From positions 1 through 41,144 of the IMG/VR virus record IMGVR_UViG_3300013132_000095: a stretch of 41,144 bases of DNA, one strand, 5' to 3'. Every line of letters starts with the position of its first letter. Position 1 is the stretch's first letter. Origin of the DNA: a virus. Position numbers and translations under genes: made by a program. This document shows positions 3,350 to 19,928 of this stretch, piece after piece. The notes below the pieces were generated by a model. That model did not search any database, had not been told where the DNA came from, and worked only from the letters and a program-made list of their open reading frames with translations.

Positions 3350-4120
3350 TTATTCAAGAATTTTGTAGGAGTATCCGTGAACAAAATCTTTACCGTTAAA
3401 TGGTCTAGAAAATTCTTCTTCTATTAATTCAGGCCAATTTTTATCTGATGAATGCCCCCAGCTTTTGACTTTTTTTAATAATAATTCTTTGCATTCATTT
3501 TCATTTTTTCCTTTAGCCCAACTATAGTGATGAAAAAGAGGTTTATTATCAGAACTTCTACAATTCTTAATAATCTGATTAACTCCTAAAGCCCATCTTT
3601 CATGAATCGAGAAAATATTTTCTTGAGTCAAATATCTTTTATCGCTCATTACAATTGAGGAAGCTTCGAAAGTCGTGGCTTGATATTTTTTATTTCTAAA
3701 ATACCAATAAACGTCAAAAAAATATGATTTTTGCTCTCCGAAATTTAAATTTTCTATAAATTTATTGAACTCTTTATCTTCTACCACTTCGTCTGAATCG
3801 ATAAATAAGATATAGTCATATTTGCTTTTTAAAATATTATTATATCTTAAGTAATTATGGCAAAATTTATATAGATGGTAATCTGATGAAAAATTATATT
3901 GTTTAACGTTATCGTACTCTAAAAAATGAAACTGAGCTTTATTTCTATTTTTTTCAAAAGTTTTCGCTAAGAGTTCTAAATTTTCTTCATCACCATTAAA
4001 AAATTTATTGAAGCTACTAACATGAATATCATCTGAAATTAATGCGGCTTTATTTATTACTTCATCTATTTGATCAAAATCAGGAGAAGAGTAACTTATT
4101 GAAATAGAAATATTATTCAT
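3350..4120 (-). CDS. GT2-like (GT-A fold) glycosyltransferase
   Basis: 256 residues from ATG 4120. An in-frame ATG at 4141 also exists, but the later start gives the usual short lead (MNNISISISY) and an 8-base overlap with the upstream methyltransferase stop. The segment YDYILFIDSDEVVED carries the metal-binding D-x-D of GT-A enzymes in the right place, after about 110 residues of alpha/beta sequence. A later HERW and a His-rich FHHYSWAKGK resemble the acceptor side of GT2-like proteins. It belongs to a run of overlapping glycosyltransferase and methyltransferase genes, so it probably acts on the same glycan. Substrate unknown. Confidence 0.75.
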   Translation of the reverse strand: MNNISISISYSSPDFDQIDEVINKAALISDDIHVSSFNKFFNGDEENLELLAKTFEKNRNKAQFHFLEYDNVKQYNFSSDYHLYKFCHNYLRYNNILKSKYDYILFIDSDEVVEDKEFNKFIENLNFGEQKSYFFDVYWYFRNKKYQATTFEASSIVMSDKRYLTQENIFSIHERWALGVNQIIKNCRSSDNKPLFHHYSWAKGKNENECKELLLKKVKSWGHSSDKNWPELIEEEFSRPFNGKDFVHGYSYKILE

Positions 4121-4658
4121 TTTTATACCAAAACCATACATTATGTTCAGTGAATAGAAGTTGACTTTTTATTGAATTCGCGTATCTGAATTCTAAAATA
4201 GCTTCTCTTACTTCGATTAGCTGAAAATCATGCCCAGAAATTATTCCATTGTTTTTTATTTTTGGATAGTAATTTTTCAAATCTTTAGAAACACCTTCGC
4301 GCGAATGATCACCATCTATAAAAATAAAATCTAACTCTTGATCTTTTATAAAGCAGAAAGCTTCTGAAGATAATTTTTCTATAATTTGAACTTTTTCTTT
4401 AAAATCATCTAGAATATCAAAAGCGATTTTTTTACTGTCTTTTATTGAATTTTTATTTATATAACTATTCCAATCTTGATACTCGATCCAAGGATCAATA
4501 GCGTATACCTTTTTAATATTTTCTACTTTACTTAATATATTATATAAATTATATCCATTTAGAACCCCTATTTCACAACCTATTATATCTTTATTTAAAT
4601 TTCTTAAATATTCTATTAATCCTGGGGCTGATATTTGATTTTGAGGAATGCTTCTCAT
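4113..4658 (-). CDS. SAM-dependent methyltransferase (Methyltransf_24-like)
   Basis: 181 residues. IGCEIGVLNGYN is the SAM-binding motif I; KVYAIDPW gives the acidic residue after strand 2; DFIFIDGDHSREGV is the signature of the Methyltransf_24 / class I sugar or small-molecule O-methyltransferase group; NNGIISGHDF follows as in that family. It overlaps the next glycosyltransferase and abuts another methyltransferase (stop and start share bases at 4658), which suggests tandem methylation of a sugar or glycan made by the cluster. The acceptor is not deducible. Confidence 0.8.
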   Translation of the reverse strand: MRSIPQNQISAPGLIEYLRNLNKDIIGCEIGVLNGYNLYNILSKVENIKKVYAIDPWIEYQDWNSYINKNSIKDSKKIAFDILDDFKEKVQIIEKLSSEAFCFIKDQELDFIFIDGDHSREGVSKDLKNYYPKIKNNGIISGHDFQLIEVREAILEFRYANSIKSQLLFTEHNVWFWYKNE

Positions 4659-5362
4659 TATTTTTTCCTCCTACATGTCCAAACGCATTTGTTGAATTCT
4701 TCTTCCATAAAATTCTCTAATCCATAGTAATCGCAAGCTGGTTGAACGTCTGAATTTTTAGTTTCCAACCAAAACCAAATTTTATTTCGTTTATTTTCTT
4801 CGAATTTTTCTTCATTGAACGAATAATCATGAGCAAAAATAAAATCTCCTTTTTTAAGAAATTGAGAAAAAAAGTTAAACTCTCTTGGTTTATCACCACC
4901 GTCGCAAAAAATAATTAGTTTTTGATTTTGGATTATGTTATTAATGAAAGCTATTGTTTTAAAAGCAAAAATATCTCCTTTATGAAATGTCACATTCTCG
5001 CATTTTTCTTTTAGGGATTCAGATACTTTTTTGTCTGGTAAAACAACATCTTTTTTTTCGATCATAAACTGTCTTTTATTTAACGTTAAATCTTCTATAT
5101 CAAATGTGTGAATTCCATTAGAATTCTTTCCTAATGCAGAATCAGCTAAAATTTTAGTAAGTCCGCCAAAATAAGTTCCTATTTCTAGAATTATATAATT
5201 TTTGTTAAATTCAGAGTTTATGTTCCGATAAAATTGATCTAAGGTATTAAAAATAGTCTTTACTTGAGCTGTTAGAGAATCTCTGTAAATAAAATCTAAT
5301 GACCCAGAAGTTTCATATGAAATATAAGGATTGATAATTTCTCTATAATTTGAATTATTCAT
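4658..5362 (-). CDS. SAM methyltransferase, cephalosporin hydroxylase/rhamnosyl O-methyltransferase-like
   Basis: 234 residues. IILEIGTYFGGLTKILAD is motif I; IIFCDGGDKPREF and then GDFIFAHDY match the CmcI / rhamnosyl O-methyltransferase branch, in which a metal-binding Asp and the HDY segment lie after strand 4. It is adjacent to a second methyltransferase (4113) and overlaps the DUF5672 gene upstream by 8 bases. Context points to O-methylation of a sugar. The annotation 'cephalosporin hydroxylase' is a family label only; no beta-lactam chemistry is implied. Confidence 0.72.
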   Translation of the reverse strand: MNNSNYREIINPYISYETSGSLDFIYRDSLTAQVKTIFNTLDQFYRNINSEFNKNYIILEIGTYFGGLTKILADSALGKNSNGIHTFDIEDLTLNKRQFMIEKKDVVLPDKKVSESLKEKCENVTFHKGDIFAFKTIAFINNIIQNQKLIIFCDGGDKPREFNFFSQFLKKGDFIFAHDYSFNEEKFEENKRNKIWFWLETKNSDVQPACDYYGLENFMEEEFNKCVWTCRRKK

Positions 5363-6035
5363 TTTTTATAATTACTCTTTTATTATGAAAGCCAAAAGTT
5401 TTTATTGTTGAAAAATCAGAAAAATATTGATTTTCATATTCTTTTTGTTTTTCATTTTCTATTGAAAATCTTGCTGCTAATTCTGGCGGCGCAAATTTAA
5501 TTCCTTTTTCTTCGAGTTGTTTTTTCCATTTTCTGCAAATTAAAGCGTCCTCTTGATAAGGTTTATTCCAATATTTTGATAAAGAAGCGTCATATTTAAA
5601 ATCTTTCTGGAGAAGAGATAGAAGTTTTTTGCTTCTTAGTGTGAAACCGCCGTTTCCAACTCTTGAATCTTCTGTCACTTGTGGATCATCTTCTAAATCT
5701 ACAGGCCACAACGCGCCAATATAATCATAATTTAAAAATTCATCTGCCCAAGCTTCAGGATTTATTACGAATCCATCGTATTGAATATGTAAAATAAAAT
5801 CAGTATCAATATACCGATTAATTCCTTCGATCATGAATTGATTATATTCATAAAATGAACTTTCTCTTCCATATAAACATTCAACAAATGGATGTCTGAA
5901 TCGTTCGCAAGAAAAAACTTTAACTTTTTTAAAATTACATAATCTTCGAGAATGTTCAATAGCTGTTAAAGAAGGCTTAAAGAATTTCTTTAATCCGACA
6001 AAGCAAGTTAATGTAACATTATCTAAATTTAACAT
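5355..6035 (-). CDS. DUF5672-type glycosyltransferase
   Basis: 226 residues. Hallmarks of the DUF5672 group are visible in order: an FILHIQYDGFVINPEAW segment (acidic residue in the D-x-D position), YDYIGALWP, VGNGGFTLRSKKLL, then an acidic EDALICR. These proteins have a GT-A-like fold and occur in phage and bacterial polysaccharide clusters. The start overlaps the stop of the upstream methyltransferase by 7 bases, so the genes are likely co-translated. Length is typical for the family. Substrate unknown. Confidence 0.8.
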   Translation of the reverse strand: MLNLDNVTLTCFVGLKKFFKPSLTAIEHSRRLCNFKKVKVFSCERFRHPFVECLYGRESSFYEYNQFMIEGINRYIDTDFILHIQYDGFVINPEAWADEFLNYDYIGALWPVDLEDDPQVTEDSRVGNGGFTLRSKKLLSLLQKDFKYDASLSKYWNKPYQEDALICRKWKKQLEEKGIKFAPPELAARFSIENEKQKEYENQYFSDFSTIKTFGFHNKRVIIKNE

Positions 6036-6655
6036 TTTACTTTCGATTTATATAGAACAAAATAGTGAGTTTCATCATTTAAAGAGTCCATTTTATCATC
6101 TGACCACATGATCGGCTGCCAAAAGTTAGTCGATCTTATCAAATGATGCATATTCAATCCGCCCATTTGCATTTTAAAATTTCTTAAAAAATCATTATAG
6201 CTTCTTGTCCAAGAAAAATAATATTTACATCTAAGCGCAAGATTCATTAAATAAGCTAAAGCTTCTTGCGGCGGCATATACTGAAACACTGTTGTTTCAT
6301 AAAGAAGAGAATAATCATTATTAATTTGATTGAAGTCATCTAGCAAAACATCTTGTTTATCGGCCTTATTCTTGTATCTCGATATCATCTCTGGAAGATC
6401 AAATCCATGAACTTCTTTAAAAATAGATTTAAGATATTTTTGATTTCTACCAAAACCAACTCCGAAATCTAGAACTTTATCAAATGATATCTTATCTGAT
6501 AAGTAATTAATATATTCTTTTGGAATTTCAGTGTGAGATGAATATTCACCTGTTTCAGCATTCCAAGAATTATTTAAATCTTTAGCTAAAACATTTTCTT
6601 CGGATGTCGCCGCGAAATTCTTCCAGTAATCTTTTTGATAATTTAAATCACTCAT
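6029..6655 (-). CDS. SAM-dependent class I methyltransferase
   Basis: 208 residues. FDKVLDFGVGFGRNQKYL is a clear SAM motif I, followed by VHGFDLPEM (motif II acidic residue) and, after DDFNQIN, the motif IV area YETTVFQYMPP. The N-terminus (NYQKDYWKNFA) is as in small methyltransferases of surface-polysaccharide clusters. It overlaps both neighbours: the DUF5672 glycosyltransferase downstream by 7 bases and the replicase C-terminal gene upstream by 8, showing that the glycan cluster is transcriptionally continuous with the replication block. Acceptor unknown. Confidence 0.75.
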   Translation of the reverse strand: MSDLNYQKDYWKNFAATSEENVLAKDLNNSWNAETGEYSSHTEIPKEYINYLSDKISFDKVLDFGVGFGRNQKYLKSIFKEVHGFDLPEMISRYKNKADKQDVLLDDFNQINNDYSLLYETTVFQYMPPQEALAYLMNLALRCKYYFSWTRSYNDFLRNFKMQMGGLNMHHLIRSTNFWQPIMWSDDKMDSLNDETHYFVLYKSKVKC

Positions 6656-7832
6656 CTTTCTTTATTTCTGATAGTTTTGTATAAATCTTATTATTTTGAA
6701 TGGCTACAAGATTAGCAAATACACATCCATCTTTTTTATTGCCTTTAATAACAACAATTTCATTCTTTTTAGGAGTTTTTCCATTCAACTCTAGACATTC
6801 TTCAAGCTTGGTATTAAATATTTTCACATTTATTATATTTGTTTCATCATAAATATCCATCGTCATATACTTATTTCCAGCTTTAGAAGTTCTTGTTTCG
6901 GAATCTTCTTTGAGACGGCCAATAAATTTGACTTCGTAGTTTTCCGGCAATCCTACAATGTCATCGATAGCAGACAATTGAACGTTAAGTTGATCCTTAA
7001 TGATATCCTTTAACGATAAACCATAAGTGTATCCAAGAAGTTTATTCTCGTAGAACCAGTTAGCGAACTTCTCAGATTTTTTATTCTTGTCATAAATTTC
7101 AGCATACTTAGCAGATTTGGTTCTAATGGTCTCCATTCTGGACTCTTTGATATAAGGCTTATTCTTTTCATCCTTCTTTTCGCAAATATGCCGAAGAGTT
7201 TTAACTAGATCATAATCAAATTGCGCGCCATAATTAATACAGAGTTTCTTTTCTTTTTCTGTCAGAGTGTTCCAGAGTTGAGCTTCATAAACAACCTTCG
7301 TTCGAGACTGCTTGAATCCTTCCAAAGCGCCCGCCTGAATCAAAGCGCAAAGAATGCCAAGATTTAATCCTGCTTCATTAGCTGTATTGAAAATCTCGAA
7401 CTTATTTTGGAAAATACCAATAAAATCATTCAGTTTGTCAATAGACTTATCTGAGATTCCTTTGATTGAAAGAAGTCCAAATCGGATATCATTTTCTTGA
7501 ATGCTAAAGTCTTTTTGAGACTTGAGAAGATGAGGCGGCAGTAGTTCAATATTAAAATGCCGCATCTCTTTATGAATCTTAGATATTTCAGCAATAGGAT
7601 CAGGTTCATGTCTTGTCATTTTAAGAAGAGACAAGAAGAATTGCTGTGGATATTTAAACTTGAGATAAGTCGTAATAGATGCTAGCGCCGCATAACAAGC
7701 TGAATGAGAATTGGAAGAGACAATTCCTCCAACATAAAAATTATGATCTTTATGCTTTACTTCCAGATCAATTGTTTTTTTAATTCCAATTGGTTTTATT
7801 GAAATTATTTTTTGTTTTTTAACAGTTTTCAT
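6648..7832 (-). CDS. dnaE: DNA polymerase III alpha, C-terminal segment preceded by split-intein C half
   Basis: 394 residues. Residues 1-41 form an intein C-terminal half ending VSSN. Residue 42 onward (SHSACYAALASITTYLK) is the conserved Pol III alpha fingers motif that should follow FNK, which ends the extein part of the adjacent gene. Then come KYPQQFFLSLL, the fingers/thumb-side region LPPHLLKSQKDF and FGLLSIKGIS (helix-hairpin-helix), and an OB-fold near the C-terminus (VKFIGRLKEDSETRTSKAGN). After trans-splicing it would complete the replicase. It lies 13 bases after the palm/IntN gene. No Shine-Dalgarno is seen, but TATAAT sits 2 bases before the ATG. The identity of the extein is very secure. 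Confidence 0.9.
   Translation of the reverse strand: MKTVKKQKIISIKPIGIKKTIDLEVKHKDHNFYVGGIVSSNSHSACYAALASITTYLKFKYPQQFFLSLLKMTRHEPDPIAEISKIHKEMRHFNIELLPPHLLKSQKDFSIQENDIRFGLLSIKGISDKSIDKLNDFIGIFQNKFEIFNTANEAGLNLGILCALIQAGALEGFKQSRTKVVYEAQLWNTLTEKEKKLCINYGAQFDYDLVKTLRHICEKKDEKNKPYIKESRMETIRTKSAKYAEIYDKNKKSEKFANWFYENKLLGYTYGLSLKDIIKDQLNVQLSAIDDIVGLPENYEVKFIGRLKEDSETRTSKAGNKYMTMDIYDETNIINVKIFNTKLEECLELNGKTPKKNEIVVIKGNKKDGCVFANLVAIQNNKIYTKLSEIKKDE
7710..7832 (-). other. Split intein, C-terminal half (IntC, 41 aa) in Pol III alpha
   Basis: The first 41 residues of the replicase C-terminal protein show intein block F (TIDLEVKHKDHNFYVGG, like the DHNF segment of DnaE inteins) and block G ending in Asn41, with Ser42 as +1 nucleophile. 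The penultimate residue is Ser rather than the more usual His, as in cyanobacterial DnaE inteins that end ASN. Codons 2-20 are Lys-rich. Together with IntN (94 aa) the intein totals about 135 aa and has no endonuclease domain. Confidence 0.88.
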
Positions 7833-7845
7833 AATTATAAAAATA

Positions 7846-9606
7846 TTAATCCGTGAGAATATTGTATCCTTTTTTTATAATTTCTGCAAGTGGGCGCATC
7901 ACTTTATCTTCGCACAGTAATTTATGTTCTAAAGATATTTTTAAAGTTCTCCCGTCTTCAAGCGTGATTTCATATAACTCTTTTTCATTTGCCATTACGT
8001 CTAAAACATCTACAAAATGATTAGAATCTTTATCTACATTATAAGCCTTTACCATATCGCCTATTTGCACATCTTTTAGCATTATTTTACCCTTGTTCTT
8101 CTCCTCTACTAATTCTTCCTCAAAGACGCATTTATTAAATGAATAATTAGCTGAATCTTCCAAGACTTTCCAGAGAATATCGCCTGCTTCTTGTGGCAGT
8201 TTATTCTCAATAATCTTATCTTGAATTTTTTGCTTCCATTTCTTGACTTCTTCGACTTTCTTCTTACCTACGATTCGGCGCAGAATTTCTGCTTCATCGA
8301 GAGAAAAACCTATCTTTGTAGCCATCTTCATCAACTGCTCTTGATAAAGTGCGACGCCTCCAGTGATTTTTAGAACATCGTCAAACAGGCTATGAATGCT
8401 TTCATATGTCTCTGTATTCGTATAAAGAGCATACTTATCAACGAACTGCAAAGCTCCGGGTCGAGCAAGAGCAAGAACGCCGCTTAATTCTTCCAAATTT
8501 TTAGGTTTTACTTTCTTTAATACTTTAAAGTTAGTATCAGCTTCAATCTGAAATAAACCATGAGGAGTTCTTAGTTCCTGTAAATTCTGATAAATAAAAG
8601 AATCATTTACATCAATATCTAGTAGATTAATTCCAATATTCTTACAAACATCATCGACAACTGAAACGCCTCGAAGACCAAGAATATCAAGCTTAATATT
8701 AAATAATGTAACCCAATTCATATCAAATGACGATACGACACTGCCGTCAGATGATCTTTCAGTTGGACATGATTCTAAAATATTATCATAGCACAAAAGA
8801 ACGCCAGAAGGATGCGCGCCTTTATTCTTGATTAGATCTTTAAGCTTTTTGGCGATCTCATAAATCCTAGAGTTTTCATCGCACCATTGCTTGAATTCTG
8901 GCACTTCTCCATAAGCTTCTTCAATATCTTTAACTTGTCCGAATACTTTTGGAATATGACCTGAGATTACAGTCATTTCGGACTCTGGCTTTTCATCTAC
9001 AACTTTGCCGCATTCCTTAATCAGAAGTTTGCTGCTAAGAGTATTAAGAGTCAGAATTTTGGCTGTCTTGCCCTCGAACTTCTTCTCCAGATACTCTAGA
9101 ACTTTATGTCTTTGATAATAACAAATATCTAGATCGACATCAGGAGCAAGCGAGCCATCTAAATATGTAACCCCATCAACAACCTGTTTTCTTGATCGAG
9201 ATCTAGAAATAAACCGTTCAAAAAAAAGACCGTATTTTATAGGATCAATTCGGGTAACATTGCAAGCGAATAAAACTAAACTTCCTGCGGCAGAGCCTCT
9301 TCCAAGGCCAGTTGGGATTTTATTAACATGACAAAAATTTATAACATCCCAAACTAAAATCAAATAGTCAGTAAAACTTAATTCATCTATAATAGACAGT
9401 TCATAATTTAATCTATTTATATATTCTTGAGAGAATAAATTTTTTTCTTTTAATCCATATTCACATAAAGACTTCAAGAAAACTAGATTAGAACAATTGA
9501 GGTCTGCGCCGATCTTCTCTTTATATTTATTTTCAATTTCAAATGAAGGAAGTCTAACTCCGTGAAGATCAAGGTTTAGATCTGAGAAATTATCGTAAAA
9601 ATTCAT
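7846..9606 (-). CDS. dnaE: DNA polymerase III alpha, palm segment fused to split-intein N half
   Basis: 586 residues. GLGRGSAAGS (100-109) and the acidic cluster PDVDLD (155-160) are the Pol III nucleotide-binding and catalytic palm motifs; Asp307 in KLDILGL is the third catalytic acid; HGLFQIEAD, LARPGALQFVD and ALYQEQLM are further C-family motifs. The extein ends SANYSFNK at residue 492, exactly where SHSACYA of the next gene should follow, and Cys493 begins an intein N half. There is no PHP domain here: it is encoded two genes upstream. The start overlaps the exonuclease stop by 4 bases. This is the catalytic core of the phage replicase. Confidence 0.92.
   Translation of the reverse strand: MNFYDNFSDLNLDLHGVRLPSFEIENKYKEKIGADLNCSNLVFLKSLCEYGLKEKNLFSQEYINRLNYELSIIDELSFTDYLILVWDVINFCHVNKIPTGLGRGSAAGSLVLFACNVTRIDPIKYGLFFERFISRSRSRKQVVDGVTYLDGSLAPDVDLDICYYQRHKVLEYLEKKFEGKTAKILTLNTLSSKLLIKECGKVVDEKPESEMTVISGHIPKVFGQVKDIEEAYGEVPEFKQWCDENSRIYEIAKKLKDLIKNKGAHPSGVLLCYDNILESCPTERSSDGSVVSSFDMNWVTLFNIKLDILGLRGVSVVDDVCKNIGINLLDIDVNDSFIYQNLQELRTPHGLFQIEADTNFKVLKKVKPKNLEELSGVLALARPGALQFVDKYALYTNTETYESIHSLFDDVLKITGGVALYQEQLMKMATKIGFSLDEAEILRRIVGKKKVEEVKKWKQKIQDKIIENKLPQEAGDILWKVLEDSANYSFNKCVFEEELVEEKNKGKIMLKDVQIGDMVKAYNVDKDSNHFVDVLDVMANEKELYEITLEDGRTLKISLEHKLLCEDKVMRPLAEIIKKGYNILTD
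7849..8130 (-). other. Split intein, N-terminal half (IntN, 94 aa) in Pol III alpha
   Basis: Residues 493-586. It begins with the Cys1 nucleophile (codon TGC at 8130-8128), has block A up to VQIGDMVKAYN, and block B around LYEITLEDGRTLKISLEH, where the usual TxxH is SLEH. It ends with a stop after ILTD, where an uninterrupted mini-intein would continue into its C half. No endonuclease motifs are present. The C half starts only 13 bases later in a different frame. Confidence 0.88.
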
Positions 9607-10241
9607 ATATCAATCTGATACTTAAGTTTATTCCAGACTTTTAGATTTAATTTGAGATCAATAATAGCGTCGTGAAGTCTGTCATATTCATGTTCAATGC
9701 CATATTCTTTTCCGAGACTTGTAAGATTTGTCTTGACACCTTTTCGCCTCGCATTTGCTAATCTGTATTGATATTCAATAATAGAATCATCTTTCTTTGG
9801 CGGTTCGCCATACTTAATACCTTTGGCGACACAATTTGTGTCTATTATCTTTTCAATAAAATGCTTCCAAGGTTTATCGTATTTTTCGCATAATCCTTTA
9901 ATAAGATAAAGATCAAAATTTAATACATTGTGGCCGACAATCTTAAAAGCCGAATTCAACCAATCATACATCTGATCAAATGCTTCTTTGGGATTAATTC
10001 CGAGTCGATTGACTTTATTCTGATCATATCTTGTAATCTTCGCAGCTTCATCGCTTATCTTGAGAGAAGTATCCCATTTAAGATACATGTCTTTAGAGTC
10101 TGTGATTTCATGCCCAATAACTTTCAGCATAGAAATCTGCCAAGGTAAATTATTAACAAGATTTAAGCAAAGGTTGAAAGTCTCAACATCGATGAATACG
10201 AATTCATCTTTATTATTAAATCTAAGTAGATGGTCGTCCAT
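9603..10241 (-). CDS. dnaQ: DnaQ-like 3'-5' proofreading exonuclease (DEDDh)
   Basis: 212 residues. Exo I motif FVFIDVETF (Asp18, Glu20), Exo II IVGHNVLNFD (Asp110) and Exo III HDAIIDLKL (His190, Asp195) give the full DEDDh set, so the enzyme should be active. It sits between the PHP cistron and the palm cistron and overlaps the palm start by 4 bases, repeating as separate genes the PHP-exo-polymerase order that PolC has within one chain. It should proofread for the split Pol III alpha. Length is typical for a stand-alone epsilon-type domain. Confidence 0.9.
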   Translation of the reverse strand: MDDHLLRFNNKDEFVFIDVETFNLCLNLVNNLPWQISMLKVIGHEITDSKDMYLKWDTSLKISDEAAKITRYDQNKVNRLGINPKEAFDQMYDWLNSAFKIVGHNVLNFDLYLIKGLCEKYDKPWKHFIEKIIDTNCVAKGIKYGEPPKKDDSIIEYQYRLANARRKGVKTNLTSLGKEYGIEHEYDRLHDAIIDLKLNLKVWNKLKYQIDI

Positions 10242-10242
10242 T

Positions 10243-10995
10243 TTATTTATTATTTAACCAATGTTCAACACAAAAAGTATCACTAGCCATATGTTCAAGA
10301 TTTGGCTTATTAAGAGTTGTTCTATTATTAATGCATCTAAAAGTAAGATAAGCTAGAAAATCTTCTTTTTTATGATAGAAGATGCTCTGAGTTTTTTGAA
10401 CCTGATACTTATCTTTTGCGTAGTGATTTACTTTAGCCTCAAGTATATAGTCGGTCGGCAGGTTGTTATCTTCAACAAAGAATATAGGACTAAATGACGA
10501 AAAATCAGGTATGCATAGATGACTGCACAAAGTATTATTGTACAGAAAACTATCGTAGAAAGGAATAGCGACCAATAAATCGTCACTGTAATTGTCATTA
10601 AGAAGTTTGTAATCGAGGCGAGGCTCATAGTAGAATCCTTCGGTTGATGCGACTGTAGAAAGTTTAATTAATTTTTTATAACCCTTAGAGTTCTTAGGAA
10701 ATATAATAATCTTCGAGTTTTTCTTTAGCGAAGCTTCGGATTTATCTGCAATGTCTTCACAAATTGTAATTCGAAGACCGAAAATTAATTTTGTTTTTAA
10801 ATCTTTAGCATAAGTATATGCTTGCAAAAAACCAGATAATGAATCATCGACAATGGTTATTTGAGGCAGATCATATTCTTTCGCAAGAGAAAAAATAGAA
10901 ACCGGCCCCGAGCTGGTAAGCGGAGCCGGTTTTTCCAAAGTCAAGATAGATTTCCCTACAGAATAGTGGGATTTAAAAAGGCCAATTCGATCCAC
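10243..10995 (-). CDS. Stand-alone PHP domain of DNA polymerase III alpha
   Basis: 250 residues from GTG 10995. The order of Pol III PHP landmarks is present: IVDDSLSGFLQAY, LIFGLRITI (the PIxGxE-like strand), IIIFPKNSKGYKKLIKLST and the EPRLDYKLL segment. The first metal motif, H-x-H in active PHP domains, is replaced by LFKSHYSVG, so metal chemistry is probably lost and the role structural. It ends CVEHWLNNK, where the palm would normally begin. It is the first cistron of the replicase set, 1 base from the exonuclease. A strong hairpin lies inside its 5' region. Confidence 0.75.
   Translation of the reverse strand: MDRIGLFKSHYSVGKSILTLEKPAPLTSSGPVSIFSLAKEYDLPQITIVDDSLSGFLQAYTYAKDLKTKLIFGLRITICEDIADKSEASLKKNSKIIIFPKNSKGYKKLIKLSTVASTEGFYYEPRLDYKLLNDNYSDDLLVAIPFYDSFLYNNTLCSHLCIPDFSSFSPIFFVEDNNLPTDYILEAKVNHYAKDKYQVQKTQSIFYHKKEDFLAYLTFRCINNRTTLNKPNLEHMASDTFCVEHWLNNK
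10901..10934. other. GC-rich terminator-like hairpin inside the PHP gene
   Basis: On the + strand, ACCGGCCCC and GGAGCCGGT flank a smaller AGC/GCT stem and are followed by five T, the form of an intrinsic terminator. On the - strand (sense for the PHP gene) the same arms, ACCGGCTCC and GGGGCCGGT, pair with one T-G and precede TTTCTATTTTTTC. It stands out in a very AT-rich setting, yet it encodes part of the PHP N-terminal region. It could stop antisense transcription or attenuate the leftward transcript. Confidence 0.5.
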
Positions 10996-16292: not shown

Positions 16293-17016
16293 GCAGATTT
16301 GGAGTTTTTAAAAGTTTTAAATGTCCGTCTTCCAAATATGGATCAATAAACATTTTATCTCTGTATTGATCTGGGTAATCTGGAACGATGAGATATGTTG
16401 GCATTTTACGCATCAAAGTCAAGGTCTTAAACGCGCTGTCTGCCGCAATCATTTTTTTACAAAGTTTAACATGACTTAAATTAACCCAAATATTATCATG
16501 ATTAACTAGACAAATATTAGGCGCAAATTTTAAATCTTCGAATATGCTTAATTCCTTTTTAGATCCAAATAAAAGATAATTCTTATCGTCTCTGAATATT
16601 TTTCTTGCGATTTTATCAGAAATATTCTTAGATGATCTTTGAAGTTGGTTATTTGCGCTCTTAGCGAAATCACTTCCAAAGGGATGAATACCAATAATTT
16701 CGTTATCGTTATCGAATGGGCTTTCGACTTCGAAAGGATCTTGTATTTGAAGATATTTATTTCTTGGGCAATCTAATGTTCCGGTTCTATCTATTTTACA
16801 TAGAGTTGAATTTAAAGAACTGAGATCATCAAAATAATAATACTTAATTCTATCACTTTCTATAAATGGAGAAAAAAAGTCGCCAGCGCCTTTGAAGTGC
16901 GTGATGACTAAAAAGTTAAGACTTTTTATAGGTTTAGCTTGATTTACAATGTCTACACACTGTAAAAAATCACCTATTCCTCCAGTAATAATAAGAGTTT
17001 TTATCTGATCGGACAT
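16231..17016 (-). CDS. GT9-like (heptosyltransferase-type) glycosyltransferase
   Basis: 261 residues from ATG 17016, chosen over 17031 because GAGGGCGGAG lies just upstream and the protein then starts MSDQIKTLIITGG. GGIGDFLQ is the GT9 N-terminal turn; IIGIHPFGS opens the second domain; MIAADSAFKTLTLMRK matches the acceptor/donor loop usually written GxDSGxxHLA. It overlaps the 3' end of nrdJ by 16 bases and is isolated from the other glycan genes by the replication block. A 29-base stretch encoding DYPDQYRD is nearly identical to one in an unrelated glycosyltransferase at 36226. Confidence 0.72.
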   Translation of the reverse strand: MSDQIKTLIITGGIGDFLQCVDIVNQAKPIKSLNFLVITHFKGAGDFFSPFIESDRIKYYYFDDLSSLNSTLCKIDRTGTLDCPRNKYLQIQDPFEVESPFDNDNEIIGIHPFGSDFAKSANNQLQRSSKNISDKIARKIFRDDKNYLLFGSKKELSIFEDLKFAPNICLVNHDNIWVNLSHVKLCKKMIAADSAFKTLTLMRKMPTYLIVPDYPDQYRDKMFIDPYLEDGHLKLLKTPNLLENEKEIIEFVQKEVYSGKE

Positions 17017-19928
17017 ACTCCGCCCTCGCACTCCACTCCTTGAATCATTTCTCCTGTTCCAATTTTAACAGAGGAAAGAGGCTGAACCTTAGCGGTCGCC
17101 TTGAGATACTCTTGCTTAGAGATTTCTTGGTAGGGAGCTTGCTTAAATCCATGCTTTTGACGAAGAAGGAAGCTAACAGATTTAATATTATTTTTATAAT
17201 TATCCTTAAGCCACTTCTTCAGATCTGCTAATTCCTTCTCTTCATAATAAGCTGTTACAGAAACAGCGTTATCAGACCAAATATTCTGTAGCTTCTTGAC
17301 CATTTCAAGCTGCTTAAGAACACTCATGTCTTCTGCTAGAATTGCTCCATCAGGAGTTTCACACGGGAAATAAACGACAACAGTATCTCGATTTTCGGAA
17401 CCATCAAAATTCAATAGATATTCAACATGATATCCTAGATCCTTACAAATCTGAACAAGATTATCGCTGCTGCTCATACGAACAGTTCGCATGTAATACT
17501 TGCTGTAAGCAGGATGTACTCCGGGCGTTGCTCCGCCTAGAAGACTTAGAGTTCCACTTGGCTTGACGGTTGTAAGCTTAATACTTCTGCTCCAATTTCT
17601 CTTCGCGCTCCACTCCTCGTCAAACTTACGAAGAGCCACATAGCAATCATCAAGCCAATCAACTTTATCTAAAGATTGACAGATACCAGTAACACCAAGA
17701 CCAAGGCGCATATTTTTATGCACAATTTCATTTGTCTCTTCATGAATAAACGGAAGAGCCGCGATAGCCTTTTGAGTCTTGTAAAGAAGAATTGCACAGC
17801 GGCTTAACTCTTCCTTTGAAGTAATATTATTTAAATAAAGTTCACAAAGATTACAGCATTCATAATTTGACAAGGAAATTTCTCCACATGGATTTGTTCC
17901 TTCTACGGTATCTACATCTCCGGGATATAGATTATTATCCTTCATTAAGCCATCTTTTGTTCTTCCGTACTTTTGGCTTAAAGGAAGATTGAAAAGACCA
18001 TATGGCTCGCCATTAGCAAATCCTGTTTCTTTATTAATAATATAACCATTTGTCCAGAATTCATCCATCAAATGAGTATAATCATCAGCATAAATTGTAT
18101 TATTACTCATTGCGCGCCAATTAGGAACATTTCCTGTTCCCCAATTCTTGCCTCTTAGATAGAGAATATCATCTGGGTCACCGATAGCAATTTCTGCGCT
18201 TCTGCGAACATTACCAGCAACAACTACGCTGCCAATAATATTACAAATATCAAGGACATCGATAGAACGAAGTTTCTTACCTTCTCTTGCTTGAAAGATC
18301 TTAGTAATCTTTCCAATACCATCTATAAGAATCTGAGGACCGCTTGCCTTTCCTCCGAATCCATTGATTGGCTCGCCGTATCCGCGAATTAAAATTGTAG
18401 AATAGGAAAAAGACTTTCCGGAGACATAGAAAGCGTCTAGTACATTGGAGAGAAGTTTTACCCAACCTTCTCGACTATCAGGAACGATATAATCTGCATC
18501 TTTTGTAGCTTGGTGTTCTACGCTAACTCCCTTTTTAATTTTCGGAAGTTCATGAACATCTTCTCTGCGAATACTGTAACCAACTCCACCACCAAGCATT
18601 AGGTTTTCAAAAAGGAACAAAAAAGACTTTGGATGATTCATTTGAGCGAACCAGCAATTTCCGGTGAGAATATTCCCTTCAATCACAAATGAACGAGTAT
18701 CTGGAACTTCCGCACAATAAACCTCTTCTTCAATCTCTGTAAGCTCATTTGAAATAACTTTAGCCCAGTTATTATAATCTCTTTCAAATGCATCTAATTT
18801 AGAGCGGTGATCATTCCTGATGATCAGATGATGTGGATTATCTGAATTATAAAATGCGATAGACCATAATTCGCTGGACTCACATTCTGAATCAAAAGGA
18901 TTATAATCACGCTCAAGATATGGTTCTGAAGTTCTATATCCAAGAACAGCAGCAATATCCCTAGCAAATTCTAATACATCTTTTTTACAATTAAAAAGAC
19001 GAATTCGACCATTACTTTTATTAACACTTCCATCAGCAGCAATCCATCCAGCTAAAAATCCTGAAAGATATTGTTTATTTTCATTAATATCTGGAAGCTG
19101 TTTATAGTAATTAGGCATTCCAGCATATCTTACATGTCTAGAATTTTCAGGATTATTCCAAGATATTCTATTCAGTGAAAAATAATTTTTGCATTCATCA
19201 TATGTATTATCAATTAAATCAATAATTGATTCATATCCATTACAAGAACCATCTCCAAATACAAGTCCATGCTGAATTCCCTGTGGACTCATTTCTTTAG
19301 AAGCATTTTTCCCGCGAACAACGGGAACTTTATCGCCAATATTTAAATTATGTGTAAAAACATCAGTAGAGTTATGATTTCTATCAAGAATCAACCAGCG
19401 ATGCTCTGGAGTCGAATAAATAGTAGAAACATTTCCATTCTTATCTTCAAAAACTGTTTTCATCAGCTTTTGCTTTCCATAAGATTTAAATGGAGCAGTA
19501 ACCCATTTTCCATTTTTTGTGACTATTTCGACATTTTTACCAGCTAAATCACCAATTTGTTTCCATCCTTGACGAGTAAGAACTTTTGTAGAATACCTAA
19601 AACAATTAAGCAAAGAATTAGCTCCAAATCTTTCAACAGTTGAGGTTCCAAGCTGCCAAAGCATTCGACCCGCGAAGTTGCACTTTAAATTAAATACATA
19701 ATCATAAAGCTCTTCTGCTTCTTCCTTTGTGTATTGTGCGCCAATTTTTTGAGCGCCATTGATACAACGAGCAACTGTTTCCCACCACTCTTCTGTCGAA
19801 CCGTCAGCCTTTAGGCGAGCGTAAGTTCTCTTATATACAACATAACCAAGACCATTAAAGCCCCAATTAGGTTGTTTGTTCTTGTATTGACTAATAAAGC
19901 TATCAGACAAAATCATGGTCTCGGACAT
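17001..19928 (-). CDS. nrdJ: Adenosylcobalamin-dependent (class II) ribonucleotide reductase with intein
   Basis: 975 residues, of which 109-424 are an intein; the spliced enzyme is about 659 aa, somewhat shorter than Lactobacillus RTPR. Extein motifs: NSLLN|CWFAQMNHPKSF, GGGVGYSIRRE, TNPCGEISLSN (thiyl Cys681), KPSGTLSLLGGATPGVHP, and a C-terminal CEGGVC pair (Cys967, Cys972) for re-reduction. The SIRRE/GFGGKASG pattern and single-chain form fit the monomeric class II type, which uses vitamin B12 and works with or without oxygen. It makes dNTPs for the phage. The B12 requirement implies a host with cobalamin. The start is preceded by TATAATTATA, not a Shine-Dalgarno. Confidence 0.92.
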   Translation of the reverse strand: MSETMILSDSFISQYKNKQPNWGFNGLGYVVYKRTYARLKADGSTEEWWETVARCINGAQKIGAQYTKEEAEELYDYVFNLKCNFAGRMLWQLGTSTVERFGANSLLNCFRYSTKVLTRQGWKQIGDLAGKNVEIVTKNGKWVTAPFKSYGKQKLMKTVFEDKNGNVSTIYSTPEHRWLILDRNHNSTDVFTHNLNIGDKVPVVRGKNASKEMSPQGIQHGLVFGDGSCNGYESIIDLIDNTYDECKNYFSLNRISWNNPENSRHVRYAGMPNYYKQLPDINENKQYLSGFLAGWIAADGSVNKSNGRIRLFNCKKDVLEFARDIAAVLGYRTSEPYLERDYNPFDSECESSELWSIAFYNSDNPHHLIIRNDHRSKLDAFERDYNNWAKVISNELTEIEEEVYCAEVPDTRSFVIEGNILTGNCWFAQMNHPKSFLFLFENLMLGGGVGYSIRREDVHELPKIKKGVSVEHQATKDADYIVPDSREGWVKLLSNVLDAFYVSGKSFSYSTILIRGYGEPINGFGGKASGPQILIDGIGKITKIFQAREGKKLRSIDVLDICNIIGSVVVAGNVRRSAEIAIGDPDDILYLRGKNWGTGNVPNWRAMSNNTIYADDYTHLMDEFWTNGYIINKETGFANGEPYGLFNLPLSQKYGRTKDGLMKDNNLYPGDVDTVEGTNPCGEISLSNYECCNLCELYLNNITSKEELSRCAILLYKTQKAIAALPFIHEETNEIVHKNMRLGLGVTGICQSLDKVDWLDDCYVALRKFDEEWSAKRNWSRSIKLTTVKPSGTLSLLGGATPGVHPAYSKYYMRTVRMSSSDNLVQICKDLGYHVEYLLNFDGSENRDTVVVYFPCETPDGAILAEDMSVLKQLEMVKKLQNIWSDNAVSVTAYYEEKELADLKKWLKDNYKNNIKSVSFLLRQKHGFKQAPYQEISKQEYLKATAKVQPLSSVKIGTGEMIQGVECEGGVCPIR
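18657..19604 (-). other. Intein with LAGLIDADG endonuclease in NrdJ
   Basis: 316 residues (109-424). Cys109 opens block A (CFRYSTKVLTRQGWKQI); block B has the TPEH of TxxH; two LAGLIDADG-type motifs are GIQHGLVFGDG (217-227) and LSGFLAGWIAADG (288-300); block F/G runs VYCAEVPDTRSF to ILTGN, with Asn424 last and Cys425 as +1. The penultimate residue is Gly instead of His. The insertion point is immediately before the conserved N-terminal redox cysteine of the reductase, so the enzyme cannot work until splicing occurs. The endonuclease probably homes into intein-less nrdJ alleles. Confidence 0.92.

What the first reader, a model, noticed from the sequence alone, without database searches (positions are those of the whole stretch)
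6648..10995. DNA polymerase III alpha fractured into separate PHP, exonuclease, palm and C-terminal cistrons
Reading leftward, one polymerase is spread over four overlapping or nearly abutting genes in the order PHP, DEDDh exonuclease, palm (with IntN), fingers/OB (with IntC). Only the last junction carries an intein, so the PHP piece must associate non-covalently. The PHP metal motif is degenerate (LFKSHYSVG for HxH). The order mirrors PolC but as separate chains.
Basis: partly seen in the sequence, partly recalled or inferred. Interest (0 to 1): 0.65.

Follow-up and report, generated by a model that had tools for sequence, protein, structure and literature searches.

The report
Viral DNA polymerase with detached PHP domain
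A large group of uncultured aquatic viruses builds its replicative DNA polymerase from separate genes, with the normally built-in PHP domain detached, stripped of all its metal-binding residues and kept as a gene of its own next to a proofreading nuclease, which suggests a polymerase assembled from separate chains.

Summary
The four genes are a DnaE-type (not PolC-type) alpha subunit plus a DEDDh exonuclease. The PHP protein models on E. coli alpha 4-247; an intein-free relative of the palm/C-terminal pair models on 274-1074. Two real fissions exist. (1) PHP is a separate gene in all 110 non-redundant relatives carrying the three genes, in the same order and strand, often with unrelated genes between. 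It is under purifying selection and has lost all nine metal ligands, while exonuclease and polymerase catalytic motifs are kept. (2) The palm/C-terminal split is a split intein found in only three lineages; L002, 89% identical, is intein-free. The exonuclease is an ordinary epsilon-like subunit, not a fragment, and the PolC analogy fails because PolC nests its exonuclease inside PHP. Twelve relatives of 78-172 kb carry a single alpha. Detached PHP is not unique: two cultured actinophage genera (Krampusvirus, Terapinvirus) also encode it separately, but with an intact metal site. Best reading: the dead PHP is a trans-acting scaffold that docks the exonuclease on the polymerase (assembly inferred, not shown). 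New variant of a known kind; I found no description of it in the papers I could search.

The parts
10243..10995 (-). Free-standing PHP domain of a DnaE-type alpha subunit (250 aa, GTG start), metal site fully lost
   Evidence: Pfam PHP 2e-14; AF2 pLDDT 87.9; VIA Z 20.8 to Taq alpha 5-258, 20.1 to E. coli alpha 4-247; ligand columns HHDHEHCDH -> -KDDRKFSF
9603..10241 (-). DEDDh 3'-5' exonuclease (212 aa), epsilon-like, no room for an E. coli-type C-terminal tail
   Evidence: RNase_T 2e-10 over residues 15-202; phrog_192 DNA polymerase exonuclease subunit 9e-20; DxE, GHN..FD and H..D motifs conserved in 76 sequences
8131..9606 (-). Palm, thumb and first fingers part of alpha (492 aa), starts where E. 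coli alpha residue ~274 lies
   Evidence: PF07733 4e-57 and PF17657 8e-33; Asp motif and LDILGLR invariant in relatives; fold of L002 homologue
7849..8130 (-). Split-intein N half (94 aa, begins Cys1)
   Evidence: Intein_splicing/Hint/TIGR01445 matches, all below curated cut-offs; phmmer to Npu DnaE intein 6.5e-8 and gp41-1 1.7e-6 for IntN+IntC
7710..7832 (-). Split-intein C half (41 aa, ends ..SSN, Ser+1 follows)
   Evidence: TIGR01443 0.031, below cut-off; part of query; homologous IntC in L064/L066 and L089
6648..7709 (-). C-terminal fingers, HhH and OB part of alpha; no C-terminal tau-binding domain
   Evidence: HHH_6 4e-13, tRNA_anti-codon 1e-4 below cut-off; L002 model ends at E. coli alpha ~1074

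Best explanation
The locus encodes a DnaE-type replicative polymerase core delivered as separate chains: (a) a catalytically dead PHP domain, (b) a DEDDh proofreading exonuclease, and (c) the palm-thumb-fingers-OB polymerase, which in this virus is made in two halves joined by trans-splicing of a split intein. The PHP chain most likely packs non-covalently on the palm where it sits in ordinary alpha, stabilises the polymerase and docks the exonuclease, so PHP has become a scaffold subunit. Shown: gene anatomy, homology, folds of the single chains, loss of all PHP metal ligands, conservation and purifying selection. Inferred: the physical assembly, docking of the exonuclease through PHP, and intein splicing in the cell.
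For: PHP and palm tile E. coli alpha almost exactly (4-247 and 274-1074). All 110 non-redundant relatives keep PHP, exo and palm as separate genes, same order and strand; the palm scan that found the first 80 loci did not select on PHP. dN/dS in close pairs is 0.03-0.07 for PHP and 0.02-0.09 for palm. PHP and palm distances correlate at r 0.94 against 0.64 for PHP-DnaB, though the primase gives 0.90. One PHP and one fingers region per record in 12 relatives of 78-172 kb; no family B polymerase domain in seven. In all 71 family PHPs the metal ligands are replaced while the exonuclease motifs are intact, the same pairing Barros et al. report for bacteria, who also show that a dead PHP stabilises Pol III and propose it positions a trans exonuclease (PMC3666897). 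An E. coli PHP-epsilon chimera has been crystallised without the polymerase (PDB 4gx8/4gx9), so the isolated domain can fold.
Against: No complex was predicted or measured; co-conservation in one replication operon does not prove binding, and the primase control gives nearly the same distance correlation. The exonuclease lacks a long C-terminal segment like the one epsilon uses to bind PHP, so docking must differ. The window record is a 41 kb fragment. The intein profile matches are below curated cut-offs.
Confidence: 0.75

Rival explanations
1. The detached PHP no longer belongs to the polymerase and does another job, for example binding or blocking a host replisome protein.
For: It is a separate gene that tolerates insertions up to about 2 kb from its neighbour and has lost the metal site.
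Against: It stays in the replication operon next to exo and palm in every relative and co-diverges with the palm at r 0.94; the palm protein lacks its own PHP, and a PHP is otherwise found in all C-family polymerases (PMC3666897).
Confidence: 0.12
2. PHP, exo and palm are joined in vivo by frameshifting, readthrough or an unseen intein, giving a single chain.
For: In the window the genes abut or overlap by 4 nt.
Against: In 65 of 110 relatives at least 60 nt, up to about 2 kb with unrelated genes, lie between PHP and exo; no intein match is reported in the PHP or exo proteins.
Confidence: 0.03
3. Assembly error or decaying pseudogene that merely looks split.
For: Single metagenomic record; fragmentation of cellular dnaE by likely errors does occur (L133).
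Against: The same architecture in 110 non-redundant relatives and low dN/dS.
Confidence: 0.02
4. The PHP chain is an active enzyme in trans (proofreading nuclease or pyrophosphatase).
For: PHP domains with intact sites are nucleases, and detached PHPs of Krampusvirus and Terapinvirus keep HHEHEHCDH.
Against: None of the nine ligands is kept in the 71 sequences of this clade beyond an Asp/Glu at one position.
Confidence: 0.04

Closest known systems
Bacterial DnaE1 / E. coli Pol III core (alpha, epsilon)
   Same: Same domains in the same order, catalytic Asp motifs kept, dead PHP paired with a DEDDh exonuclease (PMC3666897).
   Different: PHP is its own chain; exo lacks a long C-terminal tail; no tau-binding C-terminal domain; no QxxLF-type clamp motif found in the C-terminal part.
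PolC of Firmicutes
   Same: Has PHP, exonuclease and polymerase modules.
   Different: PolC nests the exonuclease inside PHP in one chain (PMC3919608); here PHP is whole. Palm fold match is lower (best Z 26 for PolC entries against 27-39 for DnaE entries).
Detached PHP of Microbacterium phage Krampus (gp56/gp57) and Gordonia phage Beyoncage/Terapin (gp64/gp66)
   Same: Separate PHP gene just upstream of a PHP-less palm gene in cultured phages.
   Different: Those PHPs keep the metal ligands, with Glu for Asp at one; no exonuclease gene between; a separate origin in the tree.
Split DnaE inteins (cyanobacterial Npu/Ssp) and gp41-1 type split inteins
   Same: Split intein in DnaE or in a phage replication gene, sequence similarity.
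   Different: Inserted at FNK|SHS, three residues downstream of the cyanobacterial site as I remember it; found in only three lineages of this clade.
Fractured genes with split inteins from metagenomes (Dassa 2009, from memory)
   Same: L064/L066 have IntN and IntC separated by about 0.85 kb; in L066 that gap holds a free-standing GIY-YIG endonuclease gene on the opposite strand.
   Different: The window copy has only 13 nt between the halves and no endonuclease.

Membership tests
DnaE-type Pol III alpha | PHP, palm, fingers and HhH/OB domains of DnaE type | tested here: met
DnaE-type Pol III alpha | Palm catalytic Asp residues | tested here: met
   D156, D158, D160 and D307 (L002 numbering) invariant in A2; the same motifs in the window protein
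DnaE-type Pol III alpha | All domains in a single polypeptide (stated for the family in PMC3666897) | tested here: not met
   PHP on its own gene in 110/110 relatives with the three genes
DnaE-type Pol III alpha | Tau-binding C-terminal domain (absent in part of DnaE3 and all DnaE2, PMC3919608) | tested here: not met
   Model and protein end after OB, E. coli ~1074
PolC | Exonuclease inserted inside the PHP domain | tested here: not met
   PHP model covers the whole domain uninterrupted; exo is a separate downstream gene
Active PHP proofreading nuclease | Nine ligands HHDHEH[C/H]DH (criterion of PMC12926913) | tested here: not met
   -KEDRKFSY and variants in 71 sequences
DEDDh (DnaQ/epsilon) exonuclease | D, E, D, D and H catalytic residues | tested here: met
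   IDVET, GHN..FD, H..I.D conserved in 76 sequences
E. coli-type epsilon | Long C-terminal segment that binds PHP | tested here: not met
   RNase_T ends at residue 202 of 212
Split intein | Cys1, block B His, C-terminal Asn and Ser/Cys +1 | tested here: met
   Sequence: C-VFEE....SLEHKLL....SSN-S
Split intein | Splicing in trans | not testable with these tools
   needs expression of the two halves

The most novel reading that the evidence does not exclude
A widespread uncultured virus clade runs a replicase whose PHP domain has become an independent, catalytically dead scaffold subunit that docks the proofreading exonuclease, so that proofreading could be assembled or exchanged in trans; together with the two cultured actinophage genera, PHP has detached at least twice.
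Probability: 0.6. Interest if true: 0.6.

Novelty: new variant of a known kind. Interest (0 to 1): 0.5.

Why it matters
PHP has been described as invariably present in one chain with the bacterial replicative polymerase, and its non-enzymatic role is still debated. A clade in which evolution keeps a metal-free PHP as its own chain makes that role directly testable: the polymerase can be assayed with and without PHP, and with and without the exonuclease.

Tried and rejected
PolC-like origin: rejected by domain order and by family and fold scores. Frameshift fusion: rejected by genes lying between PHP and exo in relatives. Second full-length alpha: not found in the window record or in 12 relatives of 78-172 kb, but the records may be incomplete. 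Clamp: no DnaN in 13 large records; T4-type clamp and Gp23 searches were uninformative because the control genomes gave no useful hit. A conserved small ORF between exo and palm in many relatives is not found in the window. Literature: no paper found that describes a detached PHP; most subscription papers were not searchable and the 2011 survey of viral replicases I looked for was not held. Distance correlation as evidence of binding: weak, because the primase control is nearly as high.

Full report
What is there. The window is a 41,144-base IMG/VR virus record. On the minus strand the genes run in the order DnaB helicase, primase, PDDEXK nuclease, PHP, exonuclease, palm/fingers, C-terminal part. 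The four genes named in the finding have exactly the stated coordinates and the stated domains. PHP ends in TAA one base before the exonuclease ATG, exonuclease and palm overlap in ATGA, and the two intein halves are separated by 13 nt.

Identity of the PHP piece. Pfam, PHROG, NCBIfam and PDB sequence searches place it with DnaE PHP domains. The AF2 model (pLDDT 87.9) aligns over its whole length with Taq alpha 5-258 (Z 20.8) and E. coli alpha 4-247 (Z 20.1); free PHP phosphoesterases score 11.5 or less. The intein-free relative L002 gives a palm/C model (pLDDT 83.2) matching E. coli alpha 274-1074. The two chains together make one alpha without the C-terminal tau-binding domain, and the break lies in the linker between PHP and palm.

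Conservation. A palm-based scan of viral contigs, blind to PHP, gave 80 loci; a PHP-based scan and a genome-contig scan added more. Of 204 loci that hold both PHP and palm, 53 carry them in one frame; those listed are bacterial dnaE genes, mainly Patescibacteria. The other 151 are separate: 149 run PHP-exo-palm on the plus strand, one is the window's own segment in reverse, and one is a cellular gene broken in several frames, L133. After removing duplicates, 110 non-redundant relatives of the window carry PHP, exo and palm as separate genes in one order; in 65 of them at least 60 nt, up to about 2 kb, separate PHP from exo. Unrelated genes lie in these gaps, including glycosyltransferase-like ones by eye. 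Twelve relatives of 78-172 kb contain one PHP and one fingers region each. dN/dS in close pairs is 0.03-0.07 for PHP.

Catalytic state. Against 53 fused DnaE proteins, 51 of which show HHDHEHCDH, the 71 family PHPs show -KEDRKFSY or close variants: no ligand is kept except Asp or Glu at one position. The exonuclease keeps its DEDDh motifs and the polymerase its Asp motifs. This matches the rule of Barros et al. that PHP loses metal binding where a separate proofreading exonuclease exists, and their finding that a dead PHP still stabilises Pol III (PMC3666897). The same paper says that all C-family members carry their domains in a single polypeptide, which this clade contradicts.

The intein. 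Only three lineages have the palm/C-terminal split: the window, L064/L066 and L089. All are at the same site, FNK|SHS. The nearest relative, L002 (89% identical palm), has no intein. In L066 a GIY-YIG gene on the opposite strand lies between the halves. The intein resembles Npu DnaE and gp41-1, although profile matches are below curated cut-offs. Splicing is inferred from the motifs.

Evolution and precedents. In a palm tree the clade is monophyletic (support 94-100) among phage and bacterial polymerases that otherwise mostly have fused PHP. Cultured actinophages Krampus (gp56/gp57) and Beyoncage/Terapin (gp64/gp66) also have a separate PHP gene, but theirs keeps the metal site. Detachment has thus happened at least twice, and the combination of detached, dead PHP with an adjacent exonuclease gene is what distinguishes this clade.

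Mechanism. The best-supported model is a polymerase core of separate chains in which PHP is a scaffold for the exonuclease and the palm. Binding is not shown here. The exonuclease has no long C-terminal segment, so it cannot dock exactly like E. coli epsilon.

Limits. No multimer prediction was possible; IMG/VR records may be incomplete; the held literature is partial; the outgroup sample in the tree is small.

Noticed in passing
window 17001-19928 (-): Class II ribonucleotide reductase with an in-frame LAGLIDADG-type intein, in the same record as the split DnaE intein.
   Followed up: no
L066 9769-10599 (-): Free-standing GIY-YIG endonuclease gene on the opposite strand between the two intein halves.
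   Followed up: partly
relatives, between exo and palm (e.g. L187 9710-10060): A conserved small ORF, about 75 aa, of unknown function lies between exonuclease and palm in many relatives but not in the window.
   Followed up: partly
window 3350-6655 (-): A run of genes resembling glycosyltransferases and methyltransferases directly downstream of the polymerase genes (read by eye).
   Followed up: no
L244 4501-7852 and L238 2753-6385: Cultured actinophages with PHP and palm on separate genes, both annotated as DnaE-like polymerase; the PHP metal site is intact.
   Followed up: yes
L230 2882-6482 and L246 3628-6910: Cellulophaga phage phi13:1 and Rossellomorea phage phiT1 have alpha split within the polymerase domain into two annotated genes; no intein search was made on them.
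   Followed up: no
L044 against L008: PHP 98.8% identical but palm only 83.5%, suggesting recombination or a chimeric contig.
   Followed up: no
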